From positions 868,001-932,000 of the forward strand of contig NZ_CP083582.1 in assembly GCF_020091585.1 (NCBI RefSeq): a stretch of DNA of 64,000 bases. The letters are read 5' to 3'. Below, one piece after another: positions 25,720 to 60,821 of the stretch. Numbering within the stretch: the stretch's first letter is position 1; the number at the start of each line of letters is the position of its first letter. Both the position numbers and the translations under genes were made by a program. The notes beneath the pieces were generated by a model. The model saw only the letters and a program-made list of their open reading frames with translations, did not search any database and was not told the origin of the DNA. Origin of the DNA: Kovacikia minuta CCNUW1 (GTDB lineage: Bacteria; Cyanobacteriota; Cyanobacteriia; Leptolyngbyales; Leptolyngbyaceae).

Positions 25720-27529
25720 CTAACTTGCAGTACTTTGGGTGGGTGTAAGCTGAATCACCAGAGGGTAATCCGATACGTTCAGGGCGATTTGAGTCGGTGT
25801 TGCATATTGTCCCGTGGCAGTGGTGGATTGGTTCGGCAGGTAGGTGGTTGCCTGGGCGATCGGGGTGGTCAGGTTCAATGTTACCGCCTGGCTGGTGGCA
25901 TCCTGATCGGTGCTGGGAACCTCCTGCCAGAGGACTAAATAGAAATCTCCATTGCTCTTTTGCAAGAGGGTATGTTCTACATTTTGAGTGCTGCCGCTGA
26001 GGGTGTAATCCAGAGAGCCAGGTGTAAAGGTGGCAGAGGTTTCGGAGGGATCGTTGAGCAAACTGATCAGGTTTTGGAGGGCGGTGAAGGCGGGTTTGGG
26101 GGAACCATCGGCACGGAGTAAGCCATAGTTATCTTCGCTGTTGGTGGTGTTCGATCGTTCATCAATTAGTTCATAGGAGAAGGTGCGAACAATGCCCTGG
26201 TTATAGTTTTCCAGGAATAGTCGCGGGATATATTTCCCTTGGACGGCTTCAGAAACGGAGCGATCGGAAAGAGGGACGTTGGTAAAGGTACCCGGTCTCT
26301 GTCGCAATTAGGGGGCGGGTACCAAAGGGTTGGGAACGGTTGACGATATCCTGCACCAGATTTGGATCACCGGGATTCTTCGGGTTGGCGTAGGGGTGCA
26401 GGTTGCCATAATCGACCCACTGACTTAAATCGCCGACTCGGGCGCTGGAATCGGAAAACACAAACGAAGGCCCAATCACCGCCACATCCTGCGTTGCAGG
26501 GTCGCTCTTAATCGCATTGTAGGTATCTTGGGTGAAGCTGCGCACATAAGACTCCCAGTTCTCTGCGGTTACCGTTGCCCCATTGTAGGAATAGCCATTG
26601 GGGTAAATGATATCAAACTCATTCAGGATTTCGACCGCTTCTACCGCACCGGGGAGTTTGTTTTTGATCAAGTCTGTAATCAGGTATCCGGGTGGTTTGA
26701 TGGCGTAAGCCGAAGTGGGACCAACCCCAATATTAGGGTCAATTACCAGTGTCGTCTGGATACCTTTGGATGCGAGTTGATTGATATTGCGAATCCAGGT
26801 GGGGTCGCTGCCGCCATCGCGAATATGGTGAATGCCCAACTCTTGCAACCGCTGTTCGATCAGGGAGTAGTTGCCATAGGTAGTGTCGTAGTAGCGCAAG
26901 TGGGTGTTGACGCCGATCGAGTCTACGAAAGAATAGGCAGTTCTGGCAGTTTCCCCGACGACTGATGCGGCAAAAAGTTGGCTGGCTGGAATAATTTCCT
27001 TAGTCTGGCTGGCACTAGCCCAGGACAGGGTAGAAATGGCATCCCCGCCATTTTCGTAATATTCCAGTTTGATGTCGTAGTTTTGTCCGGCTGTCAGGGT
27101 GAGGCTACCGCTATCTTCTGTGGTGGCATGGGGTGTCCAGTGATCGATCAGCAGTTCTCCGTTGACCCACAATCTAACGCCATCATTGGATGTGGTGTAG
27201 AAGGTGTAGGTTTCAGAATAGGTGGGTCGAATTTGTCCCGTCCAGCGCACCGAAAAATTATCGGATGGCAACACCCCGGCATTGGGGGAACCGGTGCCCC
27301 AATTAAAATTAACCGTTGGATCAATGCGAGTTTCTAGTAGGGTGTTGAAGTTTTTGCCTGCAAAATACTGTCCTGTTAGTCCCTGGCTAGTATCTAAAGC
27401 CGAAATACTGGAACTGCTCGTTGAGTTGAGCAAACGATTGGTTGTATATGCCGTTGTTAGATCGCTGTTCGGTGCGATCGCACCGTTACGGGTGCCAGCA
27501 TCGAGAACACAGACGTTAGAATCTACCAC
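25720..27529 (-). pseudogene. PA14-domain glycoside hydrolase, single frameshift
   Basis: Reading from 27529, residues about 50-190 form a PA14 carbohydrate-binding domain (GLTGQYFAGKNF, YTFYTTSNDGVRLWVNG). A TIM-barrel glycosidase follows (SIGVNTHLRYYDTTY, HHIRDGG, VEILNEFDI with the acid/base Glu, and IATETGY with the nucleophile Glu). The frame is lost directly after IATETGY, near 26290-26297, and continues in the other frame with FTNVPLSDRSVSEAVQGKY to 25720, a normal C-terminal beta domain. The start is a GTG and no signal peptide is evident. Standing at the end of the exopolysaccharide locus, it probably trims or degrades the polymer. Confidence 0.7.
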
Positions 27530-27834: not shown

Positions 27835-28896
27835 CTATAGCCCTCGTAACTCTTGATAGACTGACAGAGTTTGTTCATGAACCCGTGCGACATGAGTCCA
27901 TGCCAAATTGTTCTGTGCTTTTGTTTTCCAAGCGTTTAACTGTTCAGGATCTTTGAGTAACTGGGCGATCGTCTCTGCCAGGGCATCCACGTTAGCGGGT
28001 GGAACCAGGACGCCAGCCCTGCCACCGTCTAATGCTTCCGGAATGCCATCAACATCGCTCGCGATGATAGCACATCCTGATTCCCTTGCTTCCGAGAGAA
28101 CTAACCCAAACGGTTCCCGGTGCGATGCCAGGACAAAAATATCGGTGGCTTGTAAATAGCGCTGGGGTTGGGGTTGGAAACCCTCAAAATGAATTCGATC
28201 AGCAACGTCTGTTTGGTTTGCCAGAGCTTCAAACTGTGCCTTATCGGGGCCATTTCCCACCAGGTATAACTGCGCTTGTGGAAAATTAGGCGCAATTTTA
28301 GCAAATGCCGCAATCAATTCAGCAATTCCTTTGCGCTGATACATCCCGGCAACCGTTGTAATGGCTGGACGCTGTAAGGCGACGACAGGTAGGGGATGGG
28401 AGGGATGCGATCGGGGGCTACCCAGCGTGCCATTCCGGATCACCCGTAACTTAGCGGATGGAATGCCTCGTTTTGCCAGAGAGTCAGCCACCGCCTGACT
28501 GACGGCGATGACCCGATCCGCCAGTCCCATTAAAACAGCGCTGCGCTGAAATTCATTATGCACCGTGGAAACTAAGCCGTAGTTTGTTCCAACCCGCAAT
28601 GTTTTTGCCAGCACTAATCCAGTCATCATATGGGCATGCACGATATCCGGCTCAACGGTGTGAATCATCTGGCGGTAGTGGTTAGCTGCTTTGAGTAAAT
28701 TTAGGGGTGTCCGTTGCTGATTCAACGGCAAGTGGTTCACCCCGTACTTTGCCAACAGGGCTTCAAATTCACCCCCCGCTGAGGCAACCGCAACGGCATG
28801 ACCTGCTTTTGCCTGTAAGCACGCTAAATCGATCGCAACATGGATGATGCCGTTTCCAAGTTCGCGGATGTCGTTGAGCAGGTGGAGAATGCGCAT
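27835..28896 (-). CDS. Family 4 glycosyltransferase
   Basis: This 353-residue GT-B enzyme has the N-terminal acceptor half (LLNDIRELGNGIIHVAIDLA, HAHMMTGLVLAK) and the donor-binding half (TVAGMYQRKGI, then YLVGNGP, FEGFQPQPQRYL and the catalytic-site REPFGLVLSEARESGCAIIASD with the conserved E-x7-E). It transfers a nucleotide-activated sugar, retaining type, on the cytoplasmic side. It is the second last gene of the minus-strand polysaccharide locus; donor unknown. Confidence 0.88.
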   Translation of the reverse strand: MRILHLLNDIRELGNGIIHVAIDLACLQAKAGHAVAVASAGGEFEALLAKYGVNHLPLNQQRTPLNLLKAANHYRQMIHTVEPDIVHAHMMTGLVLAKTLRVGTNYGLVSTVHNEFQRSAVLMGLADRVIAVSQAVADSLAKRGIPSAKLRVIRNGTLGSPRSHPSHPLPVVALQRPAITTVAGMYQRKGIAELIAAFAKIAPNFPQAQLYLVGNGPDKAQFEALANQTDVADRIHFEGFQPQPQRYLQATDIFVLASHREPFGLVLSEARESGCAIIASDVDGIPEALDGGRAGVLVPPANVDALAETIAQLLKDPEQLNAWKTKAQNNLAWTHVARVHEQTLSVYQELRGL

Positions 28897-28912: not shown

Positions 28913-28963
28913 AGTTTTGAGTTTTAAGTTTTGAGTTTTAAGTTTTGAGTTTTAGGTTTTGAG
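28913..28963. repeat. Heptamer run of the AAAACTY family
   Basis: Units of GTTTTGA and GTTTTAA alternate in the spacer between two glycosyltransferase genes. The same family occurs at 36825-36900, 42691-42735, 42836-42870 and 63340-63375 and, inside genes, at 54706-54735 and 59660-59702. Confidence 0.75.
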
Positions 28964-31900
28964 TGAGGACTGAGGACTGGGAACTAAAGGAATTTTGATC
29001 GGATGCTCTTCCCCATCTTCCCTATCCTCCTCAGCTTCTCTACGCTCCCCACCGCACACCCCACACCCCATCACCCCCAGGTATTGCTCGACCACTCGAT
29101 CGAGAAAGAAATCCTGCGCTCGCTGTTTCAGGATTGCCGCATCGATGGGCTGTTCCAGGGTGGTGGCGATCGCCTCTGCCAGGGCTGGGGCATCCCCCAC
29201 AGGAACCAGCTTGCCGTATCTGCCATTTGCCAAAATTTCGGCGGGACCGCTGTCGCAGTCGGTCGAGACCACGGGGGTTCCGGCGGCGATCGCTTCGGCG
29301 ACCACGTTGCCAAATCCCTCAAATACGGAGGAGAGCGCAAACACGGATGCCTGAGCCATATAGGCATAGGGATTTTCAGCAAATCCGGGGAGGGCAACCT
29401 CGGACTCTAAACCCAGGTCGTGGATCAGGCTCTCCAGTTTAGGACGGTCTTCGCCTTCACCCAGAATCATCAGTCGGGCAGGACGGCGCTGCCGTAACAA
29501 GGCAAAGGCTTTAATCAGGGTGAAGAAGTCCTTCTGGCTGACCAACCTTCCTACTCCCAGAATCACAGGCGGTTCTGAGGGGGCAAACCAGGGATGCGCC
29601 AGCGGCTCTGCCATCTTTGCCAAAACTTCCGGTGTCACAACCGGATTGTAGATGAGGCGAATCTTTTCGGATGGGATTCCGGTCATGCGGGATACATCTT
29701 CTGCCACCCCCCTGGAAGCTGCAATAATTTGATTCGCCTGGGGGTAAAACCAGCGCACCATCATTGGTCTGATGCGCCCGATCGTATGCGGTTGGTGATC
29801 CCGAAACTGCTGGGACAGGTTCGTTTGAACGCACATCACGGTTCGAGTGGGCACGTTTGCTAACCGCTGTGCCCAGACCGCAGCCCCAAAAATGTCCAGG
29901 GCAGACATCAGAATCGAGGGCTGCTCCTGTTGCAGATAACGCCGCAGTGCCAGGGTTTTGGACACGATGACCGGGGATTTGGCGTTTAAGTCCACAATCC
30001 GGATCGAGCTGGGTACCTGGCTCAGGTAAGCGCCCTCCGCCTGTGCCAAGACCAGATCGGTTTTAATTCCCCGGTCTGCAAATCCCTGCGCCAGATGCAA
30101 CATGGCTCGTTCTGCCCCACCTCCTTCCAGAGCGGGCAGAAAAATGGCGATCGAGGGGGGTGTGGTGAGGGGGGTGTTCATGGGTTTGTCCTTTGGGGAT
30201 GGGGTGTGGGGTGTGGGGTGTGGGGGATGGGCGCAGGCTATGTTGGCTCTTAGGGAGGTTGGCTTACTAAAAAGAGAAGCTGGCTGAGCAAATTGGGAGG
30301 CTGGCTGAGTAAAAAGGGAAGCTGGCGGAGTGAAAAGGGAAGCTGGCTCAGCAAAAAGGGAAGCTGGTTCAGCAAAAAGGGAAGCTGACCTGTACGCATA
30401 GTATCTTAGGCGTTCAATCCCCATCTCCCCCATCTCCCCCACCTCCATCTCCCCCCACCCCCCACCCCACACCCTCTGATTCAGCAGTTGATCCAGCTGT
30501 TGATGAATTGTAGTCAAATGGAAGCGCTGGCGAGCCTGGGTTTGAGCTGTGCGGGCGATCGCGATCGCTTCAGCGGGGTGATCATGGCAGTGGGCAATGA
30601 TCGCTGCCAGCGATTCTGCATCCCCTGGTGGAACAAGCCAACCGTTGACTCCAGGCTCAATGATTTCCATCACCCCTCCCCCCCTGGCGGCAATGGTGGG
30701 ACGCCCACACAGCATCGCTTCCACAATCACCCGCCCAAAGGGTTCGGGAGCCGTTGAGGTGTGAACAACGAGATCGCAGGCACCCATCAGGAACACAATA
30801 TCGGAACGAAAACCCAGGAAGCGGACTCGATTGTGCAAGCCCAACGCTGCCACCTGGGTTTGAAGCTGGTGGACATACTCCTGCTCGCCATAGAGGGCAT
30901 CGCCGACAAAGATGGCGGTCACTTTTTCGGGGCTTTTAGCCAGAGCTTCTAGCAAAATGTGTTGTCCCTTCCAGGGAGACAGGCGGCTGAAATGACCGAT
31001 CACAAATTGTCCCTCCAACCCAAGCTGCTGCCGAATCGGGTTGGCATCCGAGTATTTGGGCAGATAGTCATTGGGGTTAAACCCGTTATACACAACTGCC
31101 GTGATTTCTGAGCGTCCACCCGCCGCAATAAACGCCTGCTCAGCCGCCTGGGAAGTGGCAATCACCAATTTGGCAAAGCGATTGGCTAACGTTATGGCTA
31201 AGCGACGATTGGTGGCACTGAAGTGATCGGTTGAAAGAATATCGTGCAGGTGGTAAACCAGCGGACGGCCACTGAGCAGGCTTGCCAGTGCCCCAACGAC
31301 CAGTGCCTTTTGGGTATTGGCATAAATCAAGTCATAGCCCCGACTCAGACGAACCACCTCAGCAACCAGCGGCAGTAGTTGACCAAGACTTTGCAAACCT
31401 TGGATTAAACCGCTGTCTTTTCGAACTTGAATGGATTCCGTTGCCAACACTCGAACGGGAATTTGCTGCTGTTCCAGTTGGGTTTTGAAGGGACCATCTG
31501 TGAATAGACAGACCAGGGCACGATCGCCATAGAACTTGACAATATCGAGCAAACATAACTCCGCTCCTCCCAATGCACCACTCTGATCTAAAAACAGAAT
31601 TTTCATCGTTTGATTTGCCTGGATAACAGAACGTGAGGCAGGTTTGCTGGAAGCGGGTGTGGCAACCCATTTGTGACGCAAAAAAGTGATGAGTGGTTTT
31701 TCGACCAACGCATAGGTGAGGCAACCTGCCGCGATCGCCGTAATAATGACCAAACTTAGGGTTGGTAGGTAACCCAGGCGGCTCAATAAACCCGTCGTCA
31801 GCACGAGCTTAATTGCTGCGGATAGGTAGGGATAATGAACCAGGTAAATGGAATAGGACGCATCACCCAGGTAGGGAAGCCATCGAGGTAACCGGGGCGA

Positions 31901-32770
31901 TCGCTTTAGATTAAGAGAGACCGCCCCGATCACAATTAACATTGAGGGAATACCATATCCAATGACCTGAGCAAGCGTTGACTGATCAACCTGATTCGCT
32001 CCATAAAATGCAAATAAAACAACTCCCAGAATTAGATAGAAAAGACCTGCTTGAATTTCAAGATGCGCGATCAAATAAGCAGACAGGCAACCCAAAGCAA
32101 ATTCTAAATTATGTAAGCTGAATACGAATTGAATCAGTTGGTTGTTTTCAAACGGGAACTCAGTGATGGAGCTGAGAGATTGAATCAGGAGTGTTCCTAA
32201 AATCCAGACAGGAATCACCCATTTAGCAATGGATGGCTTCAAAAAAATCGTTAAAGCAAAAATGATGTAAAACAGAATCTCATAGCTTAAAGACCATCCC
32301 ACAGTCAAGATGGGGGGATGTGTTTGGGGAATCAGTAATAGGGATTGAAAAATGGTGAACAAATCGGTTTCATATCCCTGTCCAAAGCTGGGAACAAAGA
32401 GGTAAACCGGAATCAAGATCAGCGTGATGATCCAGTACAGAGGGTAAACCCGAATCAATCGCTTGATCATATAGGTTTTTAATCGCTGAGAGTGCCCCAT
32501 ATCAAAGCGATGTACCCAAAAGACGATGAACCCACTTAAGACAAAAAAGAAATTAACGCCAGAATCCCCAAACTGAAAAATATTCAATAGAAATGGTTGA
32601 CCTAACTTTTCCCGGCTCAGTTGGGTGACATGAAACAGCAACACCAGCAGGGCTGCAATACCACGACAAACCTGGATTAACTGCAAGTGCTGTTTGGAAG
32701 CGGCTGCCTGGGCGATCGGGTAGGGGGTGTGGGGTGTGGGGTGTGGGGTGGGGGGGAGGGCGAGTTTCAT
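28952..32770 (-). CDS. Three-module protein: acyltransferase-3 + GT4 + GT4
   Basis: One uninterrupted frame of 1272 codons holds three enzymes. Residues about 28-375 are an integral-membrane acyltransferase 3 (LIQVCRGIAALLVLLFH, FFFVLSGFIVF, IRVYPLYW, about ten helices), which acetylates or acylates sugars. Residues 389-780 are a GT4 that begins MKILFLDQSGALGGAELCLL, and 864-1240 are a second GT4 that begins after MNTPLTTPP with GGGAERAMLHLA and has the SVFEGFGNVVAEAIAAGTPVV motif. The two glycosyltransferases are joined by a repetitive linker with ASLFAEP-type heptads. AAAGGA precedes the internal ATG at 30181 and the internal ATG at 31606 is also usable, so these may be three cistrons whose spacers happen to lack stops. 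All three activities fit polysaccharide assembly. Confidence 0.8.
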   Translation of the reverse strand: MKLALPPTPHPTPHTPYPIAQAAASKQHLQLIQVCRGIAALLVLLFHVTQLSREKLGQPFLLNIFQFGDSGVNFFFVLSGFIVFWVHRFDMGHSQRLKTYMIKRLIRVYPLYWIITLILIPVYLFVPSFGQGYETDLFTIFQSLLLIPQTHPPILTVGWSLSYEILFYIIFALTIFLKPSIAKWVIPVWILGTLLIQSLSSITEFPFENNQLIQFVFSLHNLEFALGCLSAYLIAHLEIQAGLFYLILGVVLFAFYGANQVDQSTLAQVIGYGIPSMLIVIGAVSLNLKRSPRLPRWLPYLGDASYSIYLVHYPYLSAAIKLVLTTGLLSRLGYLPTLSLVIITAIAAGCLTYALVEKPLITFLRHKWVATPASSKPASRSVIQANQTMKILFLDQSGALGGAELCLLDIVKFYGDRALVCLFTDGPFKTQLEQQQIPVRVLATESIQVRKDSGLIQGLQSLGQLLPLVAEVVRLSRGYDLIYANTQKALVVGALASLLSGRPLVYHLHDILSTDHFSATNRRLAITLANRFAKLVIATSQAAEQAFIAAGGRSEITAVVYNGFNPNDYLPKYSDANPIRQQLGLEGQFVIGHFSRLSPWKGQHILLEALAKSPEKVTAIFVGDALYGEQEYVHQLQTQVAALGLHNRVRFLGFRSDIVFLMGACDLVVHTSTAPEPFGRVIVEAMLCGRPTIAARGGGVMEIIEPGVNGWLVPPGDAESLAAIIAHCHDHPAEAIAIARTAQTQARQRFHLTTIHQQLDQLLNQRVWGGGWGEMEVGEMGEMGIERLRYYAYRSASLFAEPASLFAEPASLFTPPASLFTQPASQFAQPASLFSKPTSLRANIACAHPPHPTPHTPSPKDKPMNTPLTTPPSIAIFLPALEGGGAERAMLHLAQGFADRGIKTDLVLAQAEGAYLSQVPSSIRIVDLNAKSPVIVSKTLALRRYLQQEQPSILMSALDIFGAAVWAQRLANVPTRTVMCVQTNLSQQFRDHQPHTIGRIRPMMVRWFYPQANQIIAASRGVAEDVSRMTGIPSEKIRLIYNPVVTPEVLAKMAEPLAHPWFAPSEPPVILGVGRLVSQKDFFTLIKAFALLRQRRPARLMILGEGEDRPKLESLIHDLGLESEVALPGFAENPYAYMAQASVFALSSVFEGFGNVVAEAIAAGTPVVSTDCDSGPAEILANGRYGKLVPVGDAPALAEAIATTLEQPIDAAILKQRAQDFFLDRVVEQYLGVMGCGVCGGERREAEEDREDGEEHPIKIPLVPSPQSSLKT
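30257..30388. repeat. 21-bp repeats encoding ASLFAEP heptads
   Basis: Six or so 21-base units of the type AAGCTGGCTCAGCAAAAAGG run through the linker of the three-module protein, in frame, giving (ASLF-x-x-P)n. Each unit is itself three heptamers, so the run looks like an STRR expansion that remained open. Confidence 0.8.
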
Positions 32771-32853: not shown

Positions 32854-34254
32854 TTAATTGGTTTTTTGGGTAATCTGTTGAAATTGGTAGTATCGTTGGG
32901 CTGCCATTACCATGCCTGCAAAGGACCAGAAGACAACGCCAGAAAGTGCCAGAGTCGGGTTGCCTAAGCCGATTTGGGCGAAGATTCCCAAACAAATAGC
33001 ACGAGCTGCACTGATGAAGGTATCGAACCGGGCTGCGGTTGATTGAAACATTTTGAGCAATAGCAAAATAATTCCACCCAGGTAGGGAAGCGTACCAAAC
33101 CAGCCCGGGTTAAACAGCAGGGTGAGAATTCCATTGTCATTGGCACCGAGGCTATCGCTGTCCAGTACGAACCCCAGTCCCTCACCCGGAATCTCTGCCA
33201 GTGCCTTTTCCAAAGACTCGGTGTAGCCCTCTAACCGCTGGTTGTAACTCACGTCGCTTTTGGTGTCAGACAAAGATTGCAAACGTTTAGAAATCGCCCC
33301 TGCAAAGGGTTCCATATTCACCAATGGAATCACACAGACAGACATGACCAAAATGGTGATGACTAAACGCATCTGTAACTTTGGTTTGAGGGAGGGAATA
33401 AAGGACAGGACGGCGATCGCCCAGCCCATCCATGCTGCCCGCACCAGAGACAACAAAAACGCCAGGTAGCCTGCTCCCGATGCCACAAATCGGACTGGGC
33501 TTTGGCTGGTAAACAGCAGCAGCAATCCTGCCATCATGACTGTGGCGAAGGGACCCGGCGAATTCATGGTGCTGAAGATGCGCATGCCCAACGGTTCCGG
33601 GGTGCCAAAGGCGATCGATTTACTGTTAACCAGCCAGAAGCGATCCCACTCTGGCGCAATCAGATATTGCATGGCTCCATAAATGCCCGTCACCAGCACT
33701 CCCCAAACAAAGACCCGCTGGATATTTTGACGATAAGCCGGATAATATTTCCAGTTTGCAAACAGGTGAAAGCCAAACAAAAGGGGAGCCGCCCAATTCA
33801 GCAAGGGCACCACAACGGAGGTTGGCGAATTTTTGATCAGCCCCACCAGCAGACCATAGCCAATCCCCATCATGGCAAGAATAAATGGCAACCCATCCTG
33901 GCGATAACTCCTGGGCAGATGTTTTACCAGCGTCATAAAGGTCACCATCATCACCAGGAAGGGAGCCAGCAGCACTGGACTGGGGTCTACCCATCCACTC
34001 TGAAAATCGATCAGGCGACGCACAAACGGCGTTAGAAATGCGACCCACCAGGCAAACCCCAGATACAAGATGGGATACCGTTGATACAGAAAAATCCCGA
34101 CAAAGAACGCACCCGCCGGATAAGCCAACCGTAGCAATCCCCCTGCATGTACCAGCAAACATAATGCCGAAAACATGACCAACCCAAGTATCGCTGTCCA
34201 TGCCAGCGTTGGCTGCAAGCTGAGGTGAAAGCGGCTGGGAGAGGCGGTGTGCAT
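32854..34254 (-). CDS. O-antigen ligase/polymerase (Wzy-like) membrane protein
   Basis: This 466-residue polytopic protein has about eleven helices, a large periplasmic loop between the later helices and the motif YNQRLEGYTESLEKAL typical of Wzy/WaaL-type proteins. It would polymerise or ligate lipid-linked repeat units on the periplasmic side. Position between glycosyltransferase genes of the exopolysaccharide locus supports this. Intact. Confidence 0.78.
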   Translation of the reverse strand: MHTASPSRFHLSLQPTLAWTAILGLVMFSALCLLVHAGGLLRLAYPAGAFFVGIFLYQRYPILYLGFAWWVAFLTPFVRRLIDFQSGWVDPSPVLLAPFLVMMVTFMTLVKHLPRSYRQDGLPFILAMMGIGYGLLVGLIKNSPTSVVVPLLNWAAPLLFGFHLFANWKYYPAYRQNIQRVFVWGVLVTGIYGAMQYLIAPEWDRFWLVNSKSIAFGTPEPLGMRIFSTMNSPGPFATVMMAGLLLLFTSQSPVRFVASGAGYLAFLLSLVRAAWMGWAIAVLSFIPSLKPKLQMRLVITILVMSVCVIPLVNMEPFAGAISKRLQSLSDTKSDVSYNQRLEGYTESLEKALAEIPGEGLGFVLDSDSLGANDNGILTLLFNPGWFGTLPYLGGIILLLLKMFQSTAARFDTFISAARAICLGIFAQIGLGNPTLALSGVVFWSFAGMVMAAQRYYQFQQITQKTN

Positions 34255-34766: not shown

Positions 34767-35594
34767 TTATCCTTCATCCTTTATCCTTTCCCGCATCTGC
34801 CAGTCGATTTCGTACAGTTTCACTTCCTTTAGAAAAATGTAGTAGCTCCACAGAACCGAGAGGGTAAAGCCCGCCATGCCCTGGCGATACATGCCGTACC
34901 AGAGATATTGCTGCACAAACTTGGCGGGAGGTTTGAGGAGAAGCCGGAACCAGTTGAAGCGATCGCCCCTCAGATGAGACTGTTGGGCATCCAGATCGGT
35001 GTATTTGTTGAACCGAATCACCAGATCACTGATATTACGAAATCCGTAATGCCAGATAATACCGGGAAGTCTAATGACGGGCGCATCTTTCACATCGGGT
35101 CCTTCATGTACCAGCACGTCCTTGATCCGAAATACAGTTTTGTTATACAGACGGGTATGGCTTTCGGGTCGGGTATCGAGCCACTTATCCCAAAAGTCTC
35201 CGATGCGGAGTGCCGAAAATGCGTTGGCTTCTAGATGGGGTTGGCACTTCCAGGCAAGCAGGGCAGTCGTTAGCTGCTGGTCTACCACTTCATCCGCATC
35301 AATGAAGAAAATCCAGTCATAAATCGCTTTTTCGGCTCCAAAGTTGCGTTGCTCGGAGTACCCACGCCAGGGATTGTGGTAAACCTGACAACCTAACTCC
35401 TGGGCAATGGTGACGGTAGCATCCTGACTGCCACCATCAATCACGACGATTTCATCGGCAAACGGCAAGCAGGAACGAATTGCATTTGTAATGCATTCTT
35501 CCTCATCTTGAGCAATGATGACAGTGGAGATTTGGCGGAGAGAAGAACCATAGCTCCGCTGTTCACCTTCCGCTAGCTGAATGGATGCGAGCAT
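34767..35594 (-). CDS. Family 2 glycosyltransferase, WaaE/KdtX-like
   Basis: This 275-residue GT-A enzyme has TVIIAQDEEECITNAIRSC, the IVVIDGGSQDAT region, RGYSEQRNFG and the metal-binding FFIDADEVV (DxD-like). The family adds sugars to lipopolysaccharide or polysaccharide acceptors, inverting type. The stop and start codons overlap with the upstream glycosyltransferase by one base, indicating coupling. Confidence 0.88.
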   Translation of the reverse strand: MLASIQLAEGEQRSYGSSLRQISTVIIAQDEEECITNAIRSCLPFADEIVVIDGGSQDATVTIAQELGCQVYHNPWRGYSEQRNFGAEKAIYDWIFFIDADEVVDQQLTTALLAWKCQPHLEANAFSALRIGDFWDKWLDTRPESHTRLYNKTVFRIKDVLVHEGPDVKDAPVIRLPGIIWHYGFRNISDLVIRFNKYTDLDAQQSHLRGDRFNWFRLLLKPPAKFVQQYLWYGMYRQGMAGFTLSVLWSYYIFLKEVKLYEIDWQMRERIKDEG

Positions 35595-36734
35595 TAGAAT
35601 GACTTCCTTAGATAACGCGCTTTTTCATACAAGGCAAGGGTGTCCTGGGCGATGCGAGACCAACTATAGCGTTGGGCAGTTGTGTAGGCGTTGCGGCGGA
35701 GTTGCTCCAGATAGGGACGATCGCCAATTAACCGCTCCACTGCCTGCACAATAGCCTCCGTATCCCGGCAGGGAATGACGATCGCATCCTGCCCATCTCG
35801 CACCATTTCCATCGGTCCCGGTGTATCCGTTGTGATGGGAGCCAAACCACAGGCCATTGCTTCAATCAGGGCTAACCCAAACCCCTCTGAAATCGTCGGG
35901 AAGAGTTTGATCTGGTGTCCTTTTAATAGGTCAGGGAGAGTTTCGTGGGTGTAATAGGGAACCACCGTGACGCGATCGCGCACCCCTGGGTCAAAATCCG
36001 CGTAAACCTTCTCTTCCGGGCAGTCTGTTCCCAACAGGCTCACGCTTACTTGGGGATAGCGAGCCAGAATGGTGTTTAATGCCGGAGTGGCATACTGCAC
36101 CCCTTTACGAACAATGTAGGTACCAATTTGGGCAATCCGTAGCGGCGCATTTTCTGGTAACGGTTCAAAGGGCAAATTCAGAAATGCTTCGGGAATGCCA
36201 TTTGGAATAACGTGCGCTTTTTGGGGGTCAACCCCCAGATGTTCAACGGCATACTCGCGATCGCGACGATTGAGCAACAACACCAGATCCGCTAACCGCA
36301 TGGAGGCTGCCGATTCCCAAAGCCGAATGCTGCCCCGGTAAAGGGGGTACTTCCAGCTAAATTGGAGATTACCCCGCTGCACCTCTTCCACATATTCCAG
36401 GTGTTCAATATGCTCCAGTCCATGACAGCGCGGCGATCATCAATGGACGGTTCCACGCTTTATGCCTGAATGCTGCCCATACCCAACCGTCTCCCGTAGA
36501 TGCATCCACCACATCTAAACCCTGCTGCTGCTCCAGGGAAGCAATCCGCGAGGCGACAAATTCTGGAAACGCAGCAACCTTGACCAATGGATGTAATGGG
36601 TTCGGTAAACTATCCAGCGAGTAATACTCAACGTTGTGCCCCAACTGTTGATATTCCTGACCCAACCGCCAGGTGACACCCGCTGCTCCCGCGTTGATAT
36701 TGAAGTTGTAGTGACAGGTAAACAGGATATTCAT
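35594..36734 (-). pseudogene. Family 4 glycosyltransferase, single frameshift
   Basis: The N-terminal third (MNILFTCHYNFNINAGAAGVT to RPLMIA) is read from 36734, and the rest continues in the next frame with HGLEHIEHLEYVEEVQRGN through HVIPNGIP, AQIGTYIVRKGVQY and SEGFGLALIEAMACGLAPI to the stop at 35594. The break lies near 36425-36435 and is explained by one extra base. Together the parts make a typical GT4 of about 380 residues. It is probably an intact gene affected by a sequence error, or a recent pseudogene. Confidence 0.8.
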
Positions 36735-40779: not shown

Positions 40780-42659
40780 TCAGCTATTCCCTTCAGTTGT
40801 GGTTGTTTTTTGAACTGAATCAAATTCATGCTGCATCTGGTGATATTTCCAGAGTTTGCCACGCTGTTCCAGTAATTCGTGATAGGTTCCCTGTTCTACA
40901 ATTCGCCCCTGTTCCATGACCACAACTTTGTCTGCCCGCACGATCGTAGACAACCGATGGGCGATCGCAATTACGGTTCGACCTTCCGCCAATGTTTCCA
41001 GGGATTCCTGGATTAATCGCTCCGACACGGAATCTAAGGCACTGGTTGCCTCGTCCAGAATCAGAATTTCCGGGTTGCGCAACAGGGCACGGGCGATCGC
41101 AATTCGCTGGCGTTGCCCACCGCGAAAGCCGCACTCCCCGATCGCCCATTTGGGTATCCAGACCATCGGGCATTTCCAGAATGAATTCCAGGGCATTGGC
41201 AAGCCGGGCAACTTCCAGGATTTCGGCTTCGCTGGCATCCTCCGAACCGTAGGCAATGTTGGCACGAATGGAGGTGTTAAAAATAAAGGTATCCTGGCTG
41301 ACCACGGCAAGTCTGCGCCGAATCGAATTAATGTCAAACGCCCTTAAATCAACGCCATCCACCAAAATTCTGCCCAGGGTTGGGTCATAAAATCGGGGAA
41401 TCAAATCCACCAGGGTTGTTTTGCCTGCACCGGAAGCCCCCACGATCGCGGTCATCTCACCCCGTTTAATGGTCAGCGTGATGTTTTTGAGGATGGGTTG
41501 ATCTGCGGTGTAGCCAAAATCAACGGATTCAAAGGAAATCGCCCGTCGCAGCCCTGGAAAGGGTTGCGTACCATTGGCTTAAATAGGGTTTGTTGTCCGT
41601 CCGCAACAGTTGTTGGATGTTATCCAGGGCACCCGTAAAATTATTCAGCACTGCGACATTGCCATTCAATTCATGGATAGCGGGAACCAGGCGGAACAGG
41701 ATAAACAGGAAAGTTAACAGCGATGCGGTTTGGAGCATGCCATTTGCCACAAACACCGTCAGCGCCACAATAATCATGCTGATGAGTACGGTGGAGGCTA
41801 ACCCTTCCGCCAGGGGACGAATCAACGCCCAGCGCTTAACAGCTTTCATGGAAACATCCAGCAAATCCGAGCTGGCACGGTAGAACCGTTGGCGCTCATA
41901 GTCCTGGGTGGCAAATGCCTGGACTGTGCGAATCCCGCTAATAATTTCCATCGAGACTGAAGTAAACCGACCGCTGGCAGCCGGAATTCCAAAACTGGCT
42001 TCCCGCACCCTGGCATTCAGGTTTTTCAGCCCCGCTGCCACCAGGCTAAACAGCATCACAGAAATAATCGTGAGTTGCCAGGATATGGTGAACAGCAAAA
42101 ACAGGTAGACAATCAGGGTTAGCCCCTTGGTGACAATGTAGGAGAGTGCCCCAAATGCTGCCCGCAGGCTACCGATTTCATTGGTAAGTGTACTGACTAA
42201 TTCCCCCGATTTGGCTTTTGTAAAATAGCTCAAACTGAGGCTTTGCAGTTGCTCAAAGATGCGTCGCCGCAGACTATCAACCAGTTTGTGTTGGGTTAAT
42301 TCTGTGAAAACCTGGGACAAATAGTTGAATACTGCCCTGATCCAGGTGGAGATCAAAATTAATCCTGAGACCCGGAAAAGCCGACTGGTGGCTGACTCGT
42401 TGACACCCAGAATCCAAACATCAAACCAGTCATGTCCGGTGTGAAACGGTGCGGCATCGGGACTCACCAGACTTTGCAGGAATGTCAACAGGAAGCCGAA
42501 CCCAAACCCCTCAAATAATGCCGCTCCAAATGCAAAGGCGATCGCCCCAAATGCAATCCAGGGAAAGTATTTAAACTCCCCCAAAATGAGAGAGTAATCT
42601 CGCCAAAAGCTGGTTGCCTTCAGCGATCGACGAACGAGCTGGGGGAGTTTCAGACGCAT
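40780..42659 (-). pseudogene. HepA-like ABC exporter, two frameshifts
   Basis: Reading from 42659, residues 1-355 form the six-helix membrane domain. The frame breaks near 41575-41582 and resumes with NGTQPFPGLRRAISFESVDF and the ATPase domain (Walker A GASGAGKTT). A second break near 41130 lies inside the signature LSGGQRQR, after which Walker [13 protein letters not shown] and AHRLST follow to 40780. Joined, this is a full-length exporter of about 600 residues. The ATPase resembles lipid-linked oligosaccharide flippases such as HepA/MsbA, and no Wzx flippase is seen in the locus, so it probably performs that step. Two one-base insertions explain both breaks. Confidence 0.82.
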
Positions 42660-48623: not shown

Positions 48624-50171
48624 CTAAAGCCCCAGAATGCTGAAGATGGCAAACAAACCACCGATCGGAGATACAACCGAACCGAGCGTATCTGTAATTC
48701 CCGCTAAGGTAGAACGACCCACCACGATCGTGTCATTGTTTCGCAGAGCTGGGTTATTCGCTTCGCTGATTCCCTGGGAAAAATCAATCGGAATCGATCG
48801 CTGCGTCACGGTTCCATTCGGATTGAGCCGAATAAAGTTGACCGATCCCTTCTTCGCCCGATTGTTAAATCCACCGGCTGCCAATATTGCCTGGTTTAGG
48901 GGCGTGTTGGGCGGCACCTGTACTGCCCCTGGTCGCCCCACCTCTCCCACCACATAAACCGAGATTTTATCCGGTGCAAAGCTGGCAGAAGCCAGAGCAG
49001 TTGCGTCTTCAGGGGTTAGGTTCTGTGCCGTAGGAATGACAACCGTATCACCATCCTGCAACGGTAAGTCCTGACGCATATCTCCTGCTTGCAGCAGTTT
49101 CCAGAAATCCACATCAATTACCTGTTCAGAACCCGCTTTCGTCAAACGACGCACTTGAATTTTTCGAATATCTGCCGACTGGGTAATGCCCCCCGCAACC
49201 TGAATGGCTCTGGTTACCGTCGGAACTTGCTGCTTTACATCGTTATTCACACCAGGATTCACGCCCGTTTGAGTTTTGGGATCTTCAGTTAGAAGGTGGG
49301 GTCCCGGACGGTTGACTTCTCCCACGATCGCCACCCGCAGGGGTTTACTATTACTGGCTGCAAAACTGGTGGATGCGAGCTGCTGAGCTTCATTTAAATT
49401 CGTCGCTGTGGTTGCGGGAATGACAATGCTGTCCCCATCTCGCAACGGTAAATCCTGGCGAGAATTACCCGCCTGGATCAGCTGCCACAAATCAACGGAG
49501 ATGATTTCATCCGCACTGCCATTTCCTGGTCGTGGGCGACGCACCTGTATCCGCCGAATATCAGCAGATTGCGTTGTTCCCCCTGCAAGCTGAATGATGC
49601 GGGTGACAATGGGGACGCCCGCATTCGGATCTGATGTGGGTGAAACCGCAGGTACCGTGTAGGAACCCGGACGGCTCACCTCGCCAGAAATGGTGATGGT
49701 AACGGGACGGGCAGCCAGCAAGCTGATGGTAACCACTGGTCGGGTTAAATAAGGTTCAAATCGAGTTGAGATCGCCCTCGAAGCTTCCTTGAGCGTTTTT
49801 CCCTGCACGGGAACAGCACCAATTTCAGGTAAGTTCAAGCTGCCATCCGGCAAAACCTGATACTCGCCACTATATTCCGGCACACTAAAAATATCGATTT
49901 TGACGCGATCGCCTACCCCCAACTGATAACCCTCAGCAGCTACCTGCGGAACTGTGATCTGCGGTATTGCTGTTTGGGGGGTTGCTGGTTGAGGCGGTAC
50001 TTGGGGTGCTTGTGAGAGAGGTGCTAGTTGAGAATCCGTTGGACGAAGCGATTGAGCAACTCCTGATACGGGGAGTAAAGCTAACCCAATTGAACTGCAC
50101 AGGGGAAGTACACTGGCTAGGAAATGGGGTGTGGGGTGTGGGGTGTGGGGTGTGGGGAAGGAAATTTTCAT
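48624..50171 (-). CDS. Wza-like polysaccharide export protein with three SLBB domains
   Basis: After a signal peptide (LCSSIGLALLPVSGVAQ), the Poly_export domain (YQLGVGDRVKIDIFSVPEY, FEPYLTRPVVTI) is followed by SLBB repeats (ITISGEVSRPGSYTV, VAIVGEVNRPGPHLL and VYVVGEVGRPGAVQV). This is the outer-membrane exit channel family working with the Wzc-like protein. No lipobox was noticed. The ATG at 50171 is chosen over the TTG at 50222. The first residues (PTPHTPHPTPH) come from a GGGGTGTGGGGTGTGG repeat. Confidence 0.85.
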   Translation of the reverse strand: MKISFPTPHTPHPTPHFLASVLPLCSSIGLALLPVSGVAQSLRPTDSQLAPLSQAPQVPPQPATPQTAIPQITVPQVAAEGYQLGVGDRVKIDIFSVPEYSGEYQVLPDGSLNLPEIGAVPVQGKTLKEASRAISTRFEPYLTRPVVTISLLAARPVTITISGEVSRPGSYTVPAVSPTSDPNAGVPIVTRIIQLAGGTTQSADIRRIQVRRPRPGNGSADEIISVDLWQLIQAGNSRQDLPLRDGDSIVIPATTATNLNEAQQLASTSFAASNSKPLRVAIVGEVNRPGPHLLTEDPKTQTGVNPGVNNDVKQQVPTVTRAIQVAGGITQSADIRKIQVRRLTKAGSEQVIDVDFWKLLQAGDMRQDLPLQDGDTVVIPTAQNLTPEDATALASASFAPDKISVYVVGEVGRPGAVQVPPNTPLNQAILAAGGFNNRAKKGSVNFIRLNPNGTVTQRSIPIDFSQGISEANNPALRNNDTIVVGRSTLAGITDTLGSVVSPIGGLFAIFSILGL

Positions 50172-50222
50172 ACTTAGATCCGCGTGTGGTCGTCGATAGT
50201 TAGCTTGAAATATTCCTTTCAA

Positions 50223-58628: not shown

Positions 58629-60821
58629 ATGTTACGGGTTGAAAATACTTATACAGCTCCCCCGAATTCTGGAGATCTAATTTTGGGGCGAACTTTACCA
58701 TTCTTGCTAGATGAAGCATGCGATCGTACTCCCAATGCCCAGGCTTTTAATCAATGGATTGATGCAAGCTGGCAACCCCTTTCCAATCAGGATTTTCGAA
58801 CTGCTGCGGAACTGGTTGCCCTGGGTTTATTAGAATTGGGGCTAGAGAGTGGCGATCGCATTGCATTGTTGATGCATAGTGATATCAGTTTCTGCATCGC
58901 TGATATGGGATCTCTATTGGCAAATTTAGTTGATGTCCCAATTGATTTAACGCAAACCCTGGAACATATTGTCTTTGTTTTACAGCACAGTGAAGCAAAG
59001 GCATTAATGATTTCTAACTTAAATTTGTTAACCCAAATTGTGCCCTATCTTCAGGATGTTCCTGAGTTGAAGCACATTATTGTTGCCGATAGCCCAGCCC
59101 CACTTCATTCGCCTTGCCCGGATGTTTCTCCTGTGCAGGTGCCGCCATTTATCCAGCTTGTTTCTTTGGATGAGGTGCGCCTCAAGGGACAGGCCCAAAT
59201 TTCAGAAACCAGACGCCAACAACTCAGGGTCGCTGTAACCCCCGATCGACTCGCAACGATCATCTATATTCCCGATGAAACAGGACAGCCCGTGGGCGTG
59301 ATGTTGACCCATGAAAACCTGTCAGCCAATGCACTTACCTCCTTTTCTGGAATTCCCAATTTGGGCCGGGGAAATCAGGAAGTGGTGCTTTCGTTTCTGC
59401 CCCTGAACCATGTGCTTGCCCGTGTCATGGTGTACGGACACATCAACTATGGACACAGCATCTACTTTTCAAATCCGAATCGGATTACGAAGCATTTCAA
59501 AGAGGTTCAACCCACTGTTTTAACCACGGTTCCACTGTTGTTAGAGAAGATTTATGCCAAGGCGTTGGAGAAGGGAGCCAGGGGACAGGGGGACAGGAGG
59601 GTAAGGGGACAGGGAGAGAAGGGGACAAGGGGACAAGGGGAAGTAAACCCATTCCCCCATTCAAAATTCAAAATTCAAAACTCAAAACTCAAAACTCAAA
59701 ACCCTCCCTTTCTTCTCTCGCCCCTGCCCCACCTGCGGTTTTCGATGCTATTCACGCTTTTGCTTCAGTTTCTTCAGTCGCTAGCGCAATGGTTTCGAGT
59801 GTCCTTTACGCACCTGGTATTTAACCTGTCACTGCAACTCGCGAAACGATATCCGATCGGTCGATCGCCCCATCTCTTCTACACCCTGTTACTAAAATTA
59901 GCGGATCGATGGGTGCTGGCAAGGCTGCGGGCTGTTTTTGGGGGACGTTTGAAGTATGTGATTTGTGGCGGAGCAGCCCTGAAAACCGAACTCGCCCAGG
60001 TATTTACGGCAGCAGAAGTGCCAATTCTACACGGTTATGGGTTAACTCAAGCCAGTGCGGTGGTCAGTTGCAATCGGGGCAGCTTCAAACGAACGGGAAC
60101 AGTGGGAGTGCCGATCGCTGGCATGGAAGTGGCGATCGCGGATGATGGGGAAATTCTCCTCCGAGGACCGTACATCACCCAGGGCTACTTCAAAAACCCC
60201 ACGGCTACTCAGGCAGCCATCAACCCTCAAGGTTGGTTTCACACAGGCGATCTGGGCGAATTTACAGACGCAGGGTTTTTGAAAATCACAGGTCTTAAGA
60301 AAGCGCTCTTCAAACTCTCGACGGGCAAATACATTGTGCCCCAAGCCATTGAAAATCGATTGAAGCAATCTGACCTGGTGCAGCAGGCGATCGTCGTCGG
60401 GTCGGAACGAAAATTTTGTGTGCTGTTGTTGATTCCCCATCTGGAAGCGCTGCACCATCACGCCCAACAAATTGGGATGGATGCCGCCGATCAGGAGTTG
60501 CTCAAACATCCCTACGTCCTGGCTTTATATCAGTCGTTAGTCAATGCTGCCAATTGTCATTTACCCTACTGGGCAACGGTAAAACGATTCCAATTATTGA
60601 TTGCCGATCTGACGATTGAAAACGGATTACTGAAACCCAGTGGACAGATCGATCGGGCGAAGGTGAATACTGTTTTTGCGACTCACATTGATGCGCTCTA
60701 TCGAGATGTGGAAACCCAAAAAGAGCGTGATGCTGAAAAAGAATCTCCCCTGTTGGACTATCCCCCATTCCCCGAATCATCTTGCCCCACCTTTGCTCAG
60801 TCCTTAGTGATTGGGCAGTAA
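58629..60821 (+). CDS. Divergent long-chain acyl-CoA synthetase (AMP-forming)
   Basis: This 730-residue protein has the ANL-superfamily layout: N-terminal domain with LADMGSLLANLVDVPI-like text, HGYGLTQASAVVSC, HTGDLGEF with the Asp that binds AMP ribose, and GLKKALFKLSTGKYIVPQAIEN (hinge and lid start; only its ends are quoted here as GLKKALFKL and PQAIEN). Important deviations: the P-loop normally TSGTTGxPKG is IPDETGQPVG, and the usual catalytic Glu of GYGLTE is Gln. A low-complexity insertion (about residues 315-375) is encoded by GGACAGG and AAATTCAAA repeats. It should activate fatty acids, but the missing residues make activity uncertain. FadD-like by context. Confidence 0.8.
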   Translation: MLRVENTYTAPPNSGDLILGRTLPFLLDEACDRTPNAQAFNQWIDASWQPLSNQDFRTAAELVALGLLELGLESGDRIALLMHSDISFCIADMGSLLANLVDVPIDLTQTLEHIVFVLQHSEAKALMISNLNLLTQIVPYLQDVPELKHIIVADSPAPLHSPCPDVSPVQVPPFIQLVSLDEVRLKGQAQISETRRQQLRVAVTPDRLATIIYIPDETGQPVGVMLTHENLSANALTSFSGIPNLGRGNQEVVLSFLPLNHVLARVMVYGHINYGHSIYFSNPNRITKHFKEVQPTVLTTVPLLLEKIYAKALEKGARGQGDRRVRGQGEKGTRGQGEVNPFPHSKFKIQNSKLKTQNPPFLLSPLPHLRFSMLFTLLLQFLQSLAQWFRVSFTHLVFNLSLQLAKRYPIGRSPHLFYTLLLKLADRWVLARLRAVFGGRLKYVICGGAALKTELAQVFTAAEVPILHGYGLTQASAVVSCNRGSFKRTGTVGVPIAGMEVAIADDGEILLRGPYITQGYFKNPTATQAAINPQGWFHTGDLGEFTDAGFLKITGLKKALFKLSTGKYIVPQAIENRLKQSDLVQQAIVVGSERKFCVLLLIPHLEALHHHAQQIGMDAADQELLKHPYVLALYQSLVNAANCHLPYWATVKRFQLLIADLTIENGLLKPSGQIDRAKVNTVFATHIDALYRDVETQKERDAEKESPLLDYPPFPESSCPTFAQSLVIGQ
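59575..59705. repeat. STRR insertion inside the acyl-CoA synthetase gene
   Basis: GGGACAGG-type runs followed by AAATTCAAAATTCAAAACTC-type heptamers. Translated, they give a Gly/Arg/Gln-rich stretch and then [13 protein letters not shown]. Confidence 0.75.

What the first reader, a model, noticed from the sequence alone, without database searches (positions are those of the whole stretch)
28952..32770. Acyltransferase and two glycosyltransferases in one open frame
Three complete enzymes lie in 1272 uninterrupted codons. The two spacers have usable internal starts (31606; 30181 with AAAGGA). The second spacer is a heptamer-derived run of ASLFAEP-like units. Either this is a real trifunctional enzyme or the repeats closed the gaps between separate cistrons. 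A membrane acyltransferase carrying two GT4 domains on its C-terminus is not a domain architecture I know.
Basis: partly seen in the sequence, partly recalled or inferred. Interest (0 to 1): 0.6.

Follow-up and report, generated by a model that had tools for sequence, protein, structure and literature searches.

The report
Cyanobacterial acyltransferase fused to HepE-like glycosyltransferase
In one branch of cyanobacteria a membrane enzyme that decorates sugars with acyl groups has become permanently joined to a sugar-adding enzyme, while the third enzyme in the same open frame is normally a separate gene that repeat DNA has run together with the other two in this genome.

Summary
The 1272-codon open frame is real (window 28952-32770, minus strand). 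Its two junctions have different histories. Junction 1 (acyltransferase-3 to first GT4, near 31606) is a genuine gene fusion. All eight species that carry it are in frame and stop-free, although the linker has eight different lengths, all multiples of three. The fused copies form one group in both the acyltransferase and the GT4 tree. Unfused relatives have the same two genes as neighbours, in five species overlapping by ATGA. The first GT4 is close to HepE (Alr3699), a glucosyltransferase of the heterocyst envelope polysaccharide. Junction 2 (30475-30182) is a spacer filled with 21-bp and 7-bp repeats. In relatives it usually contains stops or a frame shift, it does not look like coding sequence, and the second GT4 keeps its own ATG with AAAGGA. 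It is open in this genome and, independently, in three others. If the assembly is right, a 140-kDa three-enzyme chain should still be made here, but it is not a conserved design. The locus lies in a Wzy-type exopolysaccharide cluster. An acyltransferase-3 carrying a cytoplasmic GT4 is not in the AT3 papers I consulted. I rate it a new variant of a known kind.

The parts
28952..32770 (-). Whole open frame, 1272 aa, predicted 139.6 kDa
32699..32770 (-). Repeat-derived N-terminal extension (residues 1-24), containing a CCCCACA heptamer run at 32723-32755
   Evidence: conserved homology to relatives starts at residue 20-25
31718..32677 (-). Acyltransferase-3 domain (PF01757), residues 32-351; R36-X10-H47 and R104-L-I-R107 motifs, invariant in the 6 aligned fused species
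31607..31666 (-). Junction 1 linker between acyltransferase and first GT4 (residues 369-388); in frame and stop-free in all 8 species that carry the fusion
30476..31606 (-). First GT4 (GTA), HepE/Alr3699-like, residues 389-765; EX7E motif at residues 676-684; ATG at 31606 with only AGG 11 nt upstream
30182..30475 (-). Junction 2 spacer: G-rich heptamers (30451-30474), 21-bp array (30269-30387), CCCCACA heptamers (30200-30225); non-coding-like codon score
30189..30194 (-). AAAGGA Shine-Dalgarno-like site 7 nt before the ATG at 30181
29063..30181 (-). Second GT4 (GTB), residues 864-1236; EX7E motif at residues 1151-1159; its ATG lies at or near the place where many relatives start this gene
28952..29062 (-). 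Repeat-derived C-terminal extension (residues 1237-1272) and TAA stop
32854..34254 (-). Upstream neighbour: Wzy_C/O-antigen-ligase-like membrane protein (score below Pfam's curated cut-off)
27835..28896 (-). Downstream neighbour: third GT4, syntenic in relatives

Best explanation
One ancestral gene fusion joined an AT3 membrane acyltransferase to the HepE-like GT4 that follows it in a Wzy-type exopolysaccharide cluster. The product is a bifunctional protein. Its AT3 domain (about 10 TM segments) would pass an acyl group, probably acetyl from acetyl-CoA, across the membrane onto the glycan. Its GT4 domain hangs from the cytoplasmic C-terminus and would add a sugar, probably glucose, to the lipid-linked repeat unit on the inner face. 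Tethering would hold the GT at the membrane and couple sugar addition with acylation. The second GT4 (GTB) is a separate cistron in most relatives. In this genome repeat expansion in the spacer removed the stop, so ribosomes should run on into GTB and make a 140-kDa chain, while the ATG at 30181 can also give free GTB (44 kDa). Shown: the open frame, the domains, the catalytic motifs, the history of both junctions and the synteny. Inferred: topology, substrates, coupling and the actual products.
For: Junction 1: in frame and stop-free in 8 of 8 species, with linkers of 21, 27, 30, 33, 36, 39, 42 and 75 nt, all multiples of 3; at least seven length changes all in phase has probability about 5e-4. 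Two species lack the ATG at the GT4 start. Fused copies are one side of a branch in both trees (SH-aLRT 94 for GTA, 93 for AT). Of 27 genomes with an AT match in a sample of 390 of the class, 20 have it as a separate frame and only the window's genus and g4 are fused. Unfused relatives carry AT and GTA as neighbours: ATGA overlap in G051 (with AAGGAGG) and four f13 species, close in f25. Junction 2: spacer lengths in the same 8 species are not in phase (mod 3: 0,2,1,0,0,0,2,0); 16 of 20 GTA-GTB spacers have a stop or shift. The open state needs 4 separate changes on the GTB tree. The spacer's codon score is -0.09 against +0.26 to +0.33 for the domains. GTB keeps ATG and AAAGGA. Function: GTA matches Alr3699/HepE at E 1e-156; AT3 motifs are invariant; cluster synteny.
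Against: No protein data. The AT donor, acceptor and topology were not tested; the AlphaFold model is poor in the AT domain (mean pLDDT 61). Three neighbouring genes are frameshifted in this window relative to relatives, so the assembly may contain indels, and the homopolymer-rich spacer could be wrong. Four open junction-2 spacers against 0.83 expected is a mild excess (Poisson P about 0.01), which could mean the longer fusion is sometimes favoured. G003 has another in-frame ATG 14 codons upstream of the GTA start, so the missing ATG there does not by itself exclude an internal start.
Confidence: 0.75

Rival explanations
1. Real and selected trifunctional enzyme: AT3, HepE-like GT4 and GTB work as one chain, with the repeat array as a flexible linker.
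For: No in-frame stop from 32770 to 28952. The three-enzyme frame is also open in S. frigidus (1268 codons) and G063 (994 codons to the contig edge), and GTA-GTB is open in G025; 4 open against 0.83 expected. Repeat-rich DNA is kept open inside another enzyme of this genome, the acyl-CoA synthetase at 58629-60821.
Against: The open state arose independently, linkers are not homologous, closely related species have stops or shifts, the spacer scores as non-coding, and GTB retains its start and SD.
Confidence: 0.2
2. Three separate cistrons at both junctions: the open frame is accidental and all three proteins start at their own ATGs.
For: ATGs exist at 31606 and 30181. The AT and GTA genes are separate in other cyanobacteria.
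Against: Junction 1 is in phase in 8 of 8 species with 8 linker lengths; no good SD at 31606; the ATG is missing in L007 (G003) and L006 (G028). With no stop, ribosomes cannot end after AT.
Confidence: 0.05
3. Sequencing or assembly error created or preserved the open frame at junction 2; the true sequence has a shift or stop in the homopolymer-rich spacer.
For: Three nearby genes (25720-27529, 35594-36734, 40826-42659) are split by frameshifts that relatives lack. The spacer is rich in G and T runs.
Against: The frame is continuous over 1272 codons with no sign of shift in any domain. S. frigidus and G063 show the same open state in independent assemblies. The split genes may instead be decaying.
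Confidence: 0.2

Closest known systems
Acyltransferase-3 (PF01757), AT3-only proteins such as Oac and WbaK
   Same: PF01757 match, R-X10-H and RXXR motifs, about 10 hydrophobic segments, location in a polysaccharide cluster.
   Different: Carries a GT4 domain on its C-terminus. The AT3 papers consulted (PMC9558356, PMC7448272, PMC9833829) describe AT3-only, AT3-SGNH, alanine racemase and eukaryotic fusions; the passages I read do not mention GT4.
AT3-SGNH fusions (OatA, OafA, OafB)
   Same: AT3 with a C-terminal enzymatic partner for polysaccharide modification.
   Different: No SGNH domain and no hydrophobic segment that would serve as an 11th TM helix, so the partner is expected in the cytoplasm rather than outside.
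HepE / Alr3699 glucosyltransferase (PDB 4xso)
   Same: GTA matches over its full length, E 1e-156, EX7E motif.
   Different: Alr3699 is a free protein, downstream of HepB in Anabaena (PMC2211374). Here it is fused to AT3 in a Wzy-type cluster. The window's GTB is not HepB: the gene upstream of the closest HepE homologues matches GTB at about 24% or not at all.
Unfused AT + hepE-like gene pairs in other cyanobacteria (G051, f13, f25)
   Same: Same two genes side by side in the same order, often ATGA-overlapping.
   Different: Separate stop and start; the window's clade has one frame.

Membership tests
Acyltransferase-3 (PF01757) | Profile match above the curated cut-off | tested here: met
   95.7 bits against a cut-off of 31, residues 32-351
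Acyltransferase-3 (PF01757) | R-X10-H in TMH1 and RXXR motif (essential in OafA, PMC7448272) | tested here: met
   R36/H47 and R104/R107, invariant in 6 of 6 aligned species
Acyltransferase-3 (PF01757) | Ten TM helices, both ends cytoplasmic | tested here: inconclusive
   Hydropathy gives 9-11 segments and none in the junction 1 linker; the AlphaFold model is weak in this domain
Acyltransferase-3 (PF01757) | Acyl transfer to a glycan | not testable with these tools
   needs a biochemical assay
AT3-SGNH fusion | SGNH domain and 11th TM helix | tested here: not met
   No SGNH family among Pfam hits; no hydrophobic segment between the AT domain and the GT4 domain
HepE / Alr3699-like GT4 | Full-length homology to Alr3699, GT4 domains, EX7E motif | tested here: met
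HepE / Alr3699-like GT4 | UDP-glucose specificity and role in heterocyst envelope | not testable with these tools
   Function is taken from the Alr3699/HepE literature; the window's genome was not shown to make heterocysts
HepB (for GTB) | Orthology to the GT gene upstream of hepE | tested here: not met
   At most about 24% identity between GTB and the gene upstream of the closest HepE homologues (f32 genomes)

The most novel reading that the evidence does not exclude
A membrane-anchored assembly-line enzyme: a single chain adds two successive sugars to the lipid-linked repeat unit on the cytoplasmic side and acylates it across the membrane. The repeat spacer works as an evolvable linker, and the GT4-GT4 junction has been opened repeatedly because keeping the two transferases together is useful.
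Probability: 0.2. Interest if true: 0.6.

Novelty: new variant of a known kind. Interest (0 to 1): 0.42.

Why it matters
AT3 acyltransferases move acyl groups across membranes, but how they meet their glycan acceptor is an open question for AT3-only members (PMC9558356). A natural, conserved fusion to the glycosyltransferase of the same pathway suggests which sugar is the acceptor and at what stage it is acylated, and gives a testable handle. The second junction shows how repeat expansion in cyanobacterial spacers can merge neighbouring genes, which can mislead genome annotation into reporting fusion enzymes.

Tried and rejected
GTB as a HepB orthologue: rejected. The 21-bp array as a dispersed mobile repeat: rejected, it is found only here in the genome and other matches equal the control. 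Open frames of 791-1244 aa reported by the genome search for genomes such as G008, G010, G019, G079 and G092: not trusted as fusions, because my own stop-to-stop reading showed separate frames in those genomes (G061 was not checked). AlphaFold model of AT-GTA: mean pLDDT 61, too weak for topology or a fold search. Solved-structure relatives of the AT domain: none. Papers on AT3-GT fusions: none found in the held library.

Full report
THE OBSERVATION. The open frame 28952..32770 (minus strand) has 1272 codons, as reported. Pfam gives Acyl_transf_3 at residues 32-351 and two complete GT4 enzymes. I call them AT, GTA (389-765) and GTB (864-1236). Three stretches lie outside the domains and are repeat-derived: the N-terminus (1-24), the spacer 766-863, and the C-terminus (1237-1272).

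JUNCTION 1 IS A GENUINE FUSION. The AT-GTA junction was read in the window and seven other species: G028, Tildeniella nuda (G032), Stenomitos rutilans (G019), S. frigidus (G062), a Centralia MAG (G064), Lyngbya sp. HA4199 (G003) and G063. At least seven length changes all in phase has a chance of about (1/3)^7, or 5e-4. G003 and G028 have no ATG at the GTA start. All seven held species of genus g4 and the window's species carry the fusion, and the fused copies form one side of a branch in both the GTA tree (SH-aLRT 94) and the AT tree (93). Among 390 genomes of the class, 27 have an AT match at E 1e-35 and only the window's genus and g4 have it fused.

WHERE THE FUSION CAME FROM. In G051 the AT gene ends ...EAQR* with AAGGAGG and an ATGA overlap into GTA; four f13 species also have ATGA overlaps; in f25 the two genes are neighbours with a short gap. 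Fusion therefore joined two genes that already lay side by side, in some lineages overlapping.

JUNCTION 2 IS A SPACER THAT HAS LOST ITS STOP. The GTA-GTB spacers of 20 genomes were compared. Sixteen have a stop or frame shift. In the eight species with the AT-GTA fusion, spacer lengths are not held in phase (mod 3: 0,2,1,0,0,0,2,0). Four are open (window, S. frigidus, G063, G025), with unrelated linkers, and need four changes on the GTB tree. Chance predicts 0.83, so there is a mild excess (Poisson P about 0.01). The window's spacer scores -0.09 on a codon model where the domains score +0.26 to +0.33, and GTB keeps an ATG with AAAGGA at 7 nt. The 21-bp array occurs nowhere else in the genome beyond the control level. 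Heptamer arrays are scattered over the window: of 14 runs, 8 lie outside called ORFs, 3 in this ORF and 3 in other ORFs. Heptanucleotide repeats are reported as the commonest class of such repeats in most genomes rich in them, cyanobacteria included (PMC4679880).

WHAT IS PROBABLY MADE. With no in-frame stop, ribosomes that translate AT-GTA must continue into GTB, so a chain of about 140 kDa is expected here if the assembly is correct; GTB of 44 kDa may also be made from its own start (inference). Repeat-rich DNA is tolerated inside a coding frame in this genome: the acyl-CoA synthetase at 58629-60821 carries a stretch of roughly 70 residues, including a heptamer array, inside its AMP-binding domain that relatives lack. 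Against trusting the frame, three genes of the same cluster are split by frameshifts absent in relatives: indel errors or decay.

FUNCTION. GTA matches Alr3699/HepE (PDB 4xso) over its whole length at E 1e-156. HepE is a glucosyltransferase of the heterocyst envelope polysaccharide (Wang et al. 2016, by its title as cited in PMC12052932). AT has the R-X10-H and RXXR motifs essential in OafA (PMC7448272), invariant in six aligned species. Hydropathy gives about ten segments and none in the linker; Oac has both termini in the cytoplasm (PMC9833829), which would put the GT with its nucleotide sugars. The cluster is an exopolysaccharide locus: SLBB export protein, Wzz-like kinase, sugar transferase, ABC exporter, many GTs and a Wzy_C-like protein directly upstream. 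Order is conserved in relatives: GT2, Wzy-like, [AT-GTA], GTB, GT4, PA14 protein; G008, G010 and G025 lack AT at the same place. So AT looks like an optional decoration step (inference). GTB is not HepB.

VERDICT. Junction 1: a conserved architecture (AT3 with a HepE-like GT4, expected in the cytoplasm) that the AT3 papers consulted do not mention in the passages read; whether domain databases already list it could not be checked. Junction 2: most likely incidental. Overall a new variant of a known kind.

Noticed in passing
window 58629-60821 (+), insert about residues 317-391: Acyl-CoA synthetase (AMP-binding) with a roughly 70-residue repeat-rich in-frame stretch (heptamer array at 59659-59704) inside its domain; relatives' matches skip it.
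   Followed up: partly
window 35594-36391 and 36405-36734 (-): GT4 gene split by a single-base frameshift; one frame in G025 and G010.
   Followed up: partly
window 25720-26307 and 26249-27529 (-): PA14-domain protein split by a frameshift; one frame in Tildeniella.
   Followed up: partly
window 40826-41455 and 41529-42659 (-): ABC exporter split into membrane and ATPase parts; one frame in G010.
   Followed up: partly
window 48624-50222 (-): SLBB/polysaccharide export protein whose predicted start region contains a CCCCACA heptamer array (50124-50158); the start may be misplaced.
   Followed up: no
L039 6022-7065 and 10545-11630: Anabaena subtropica has AT and GTB homologues near each other with no GTA match between them.
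   Followed up: no
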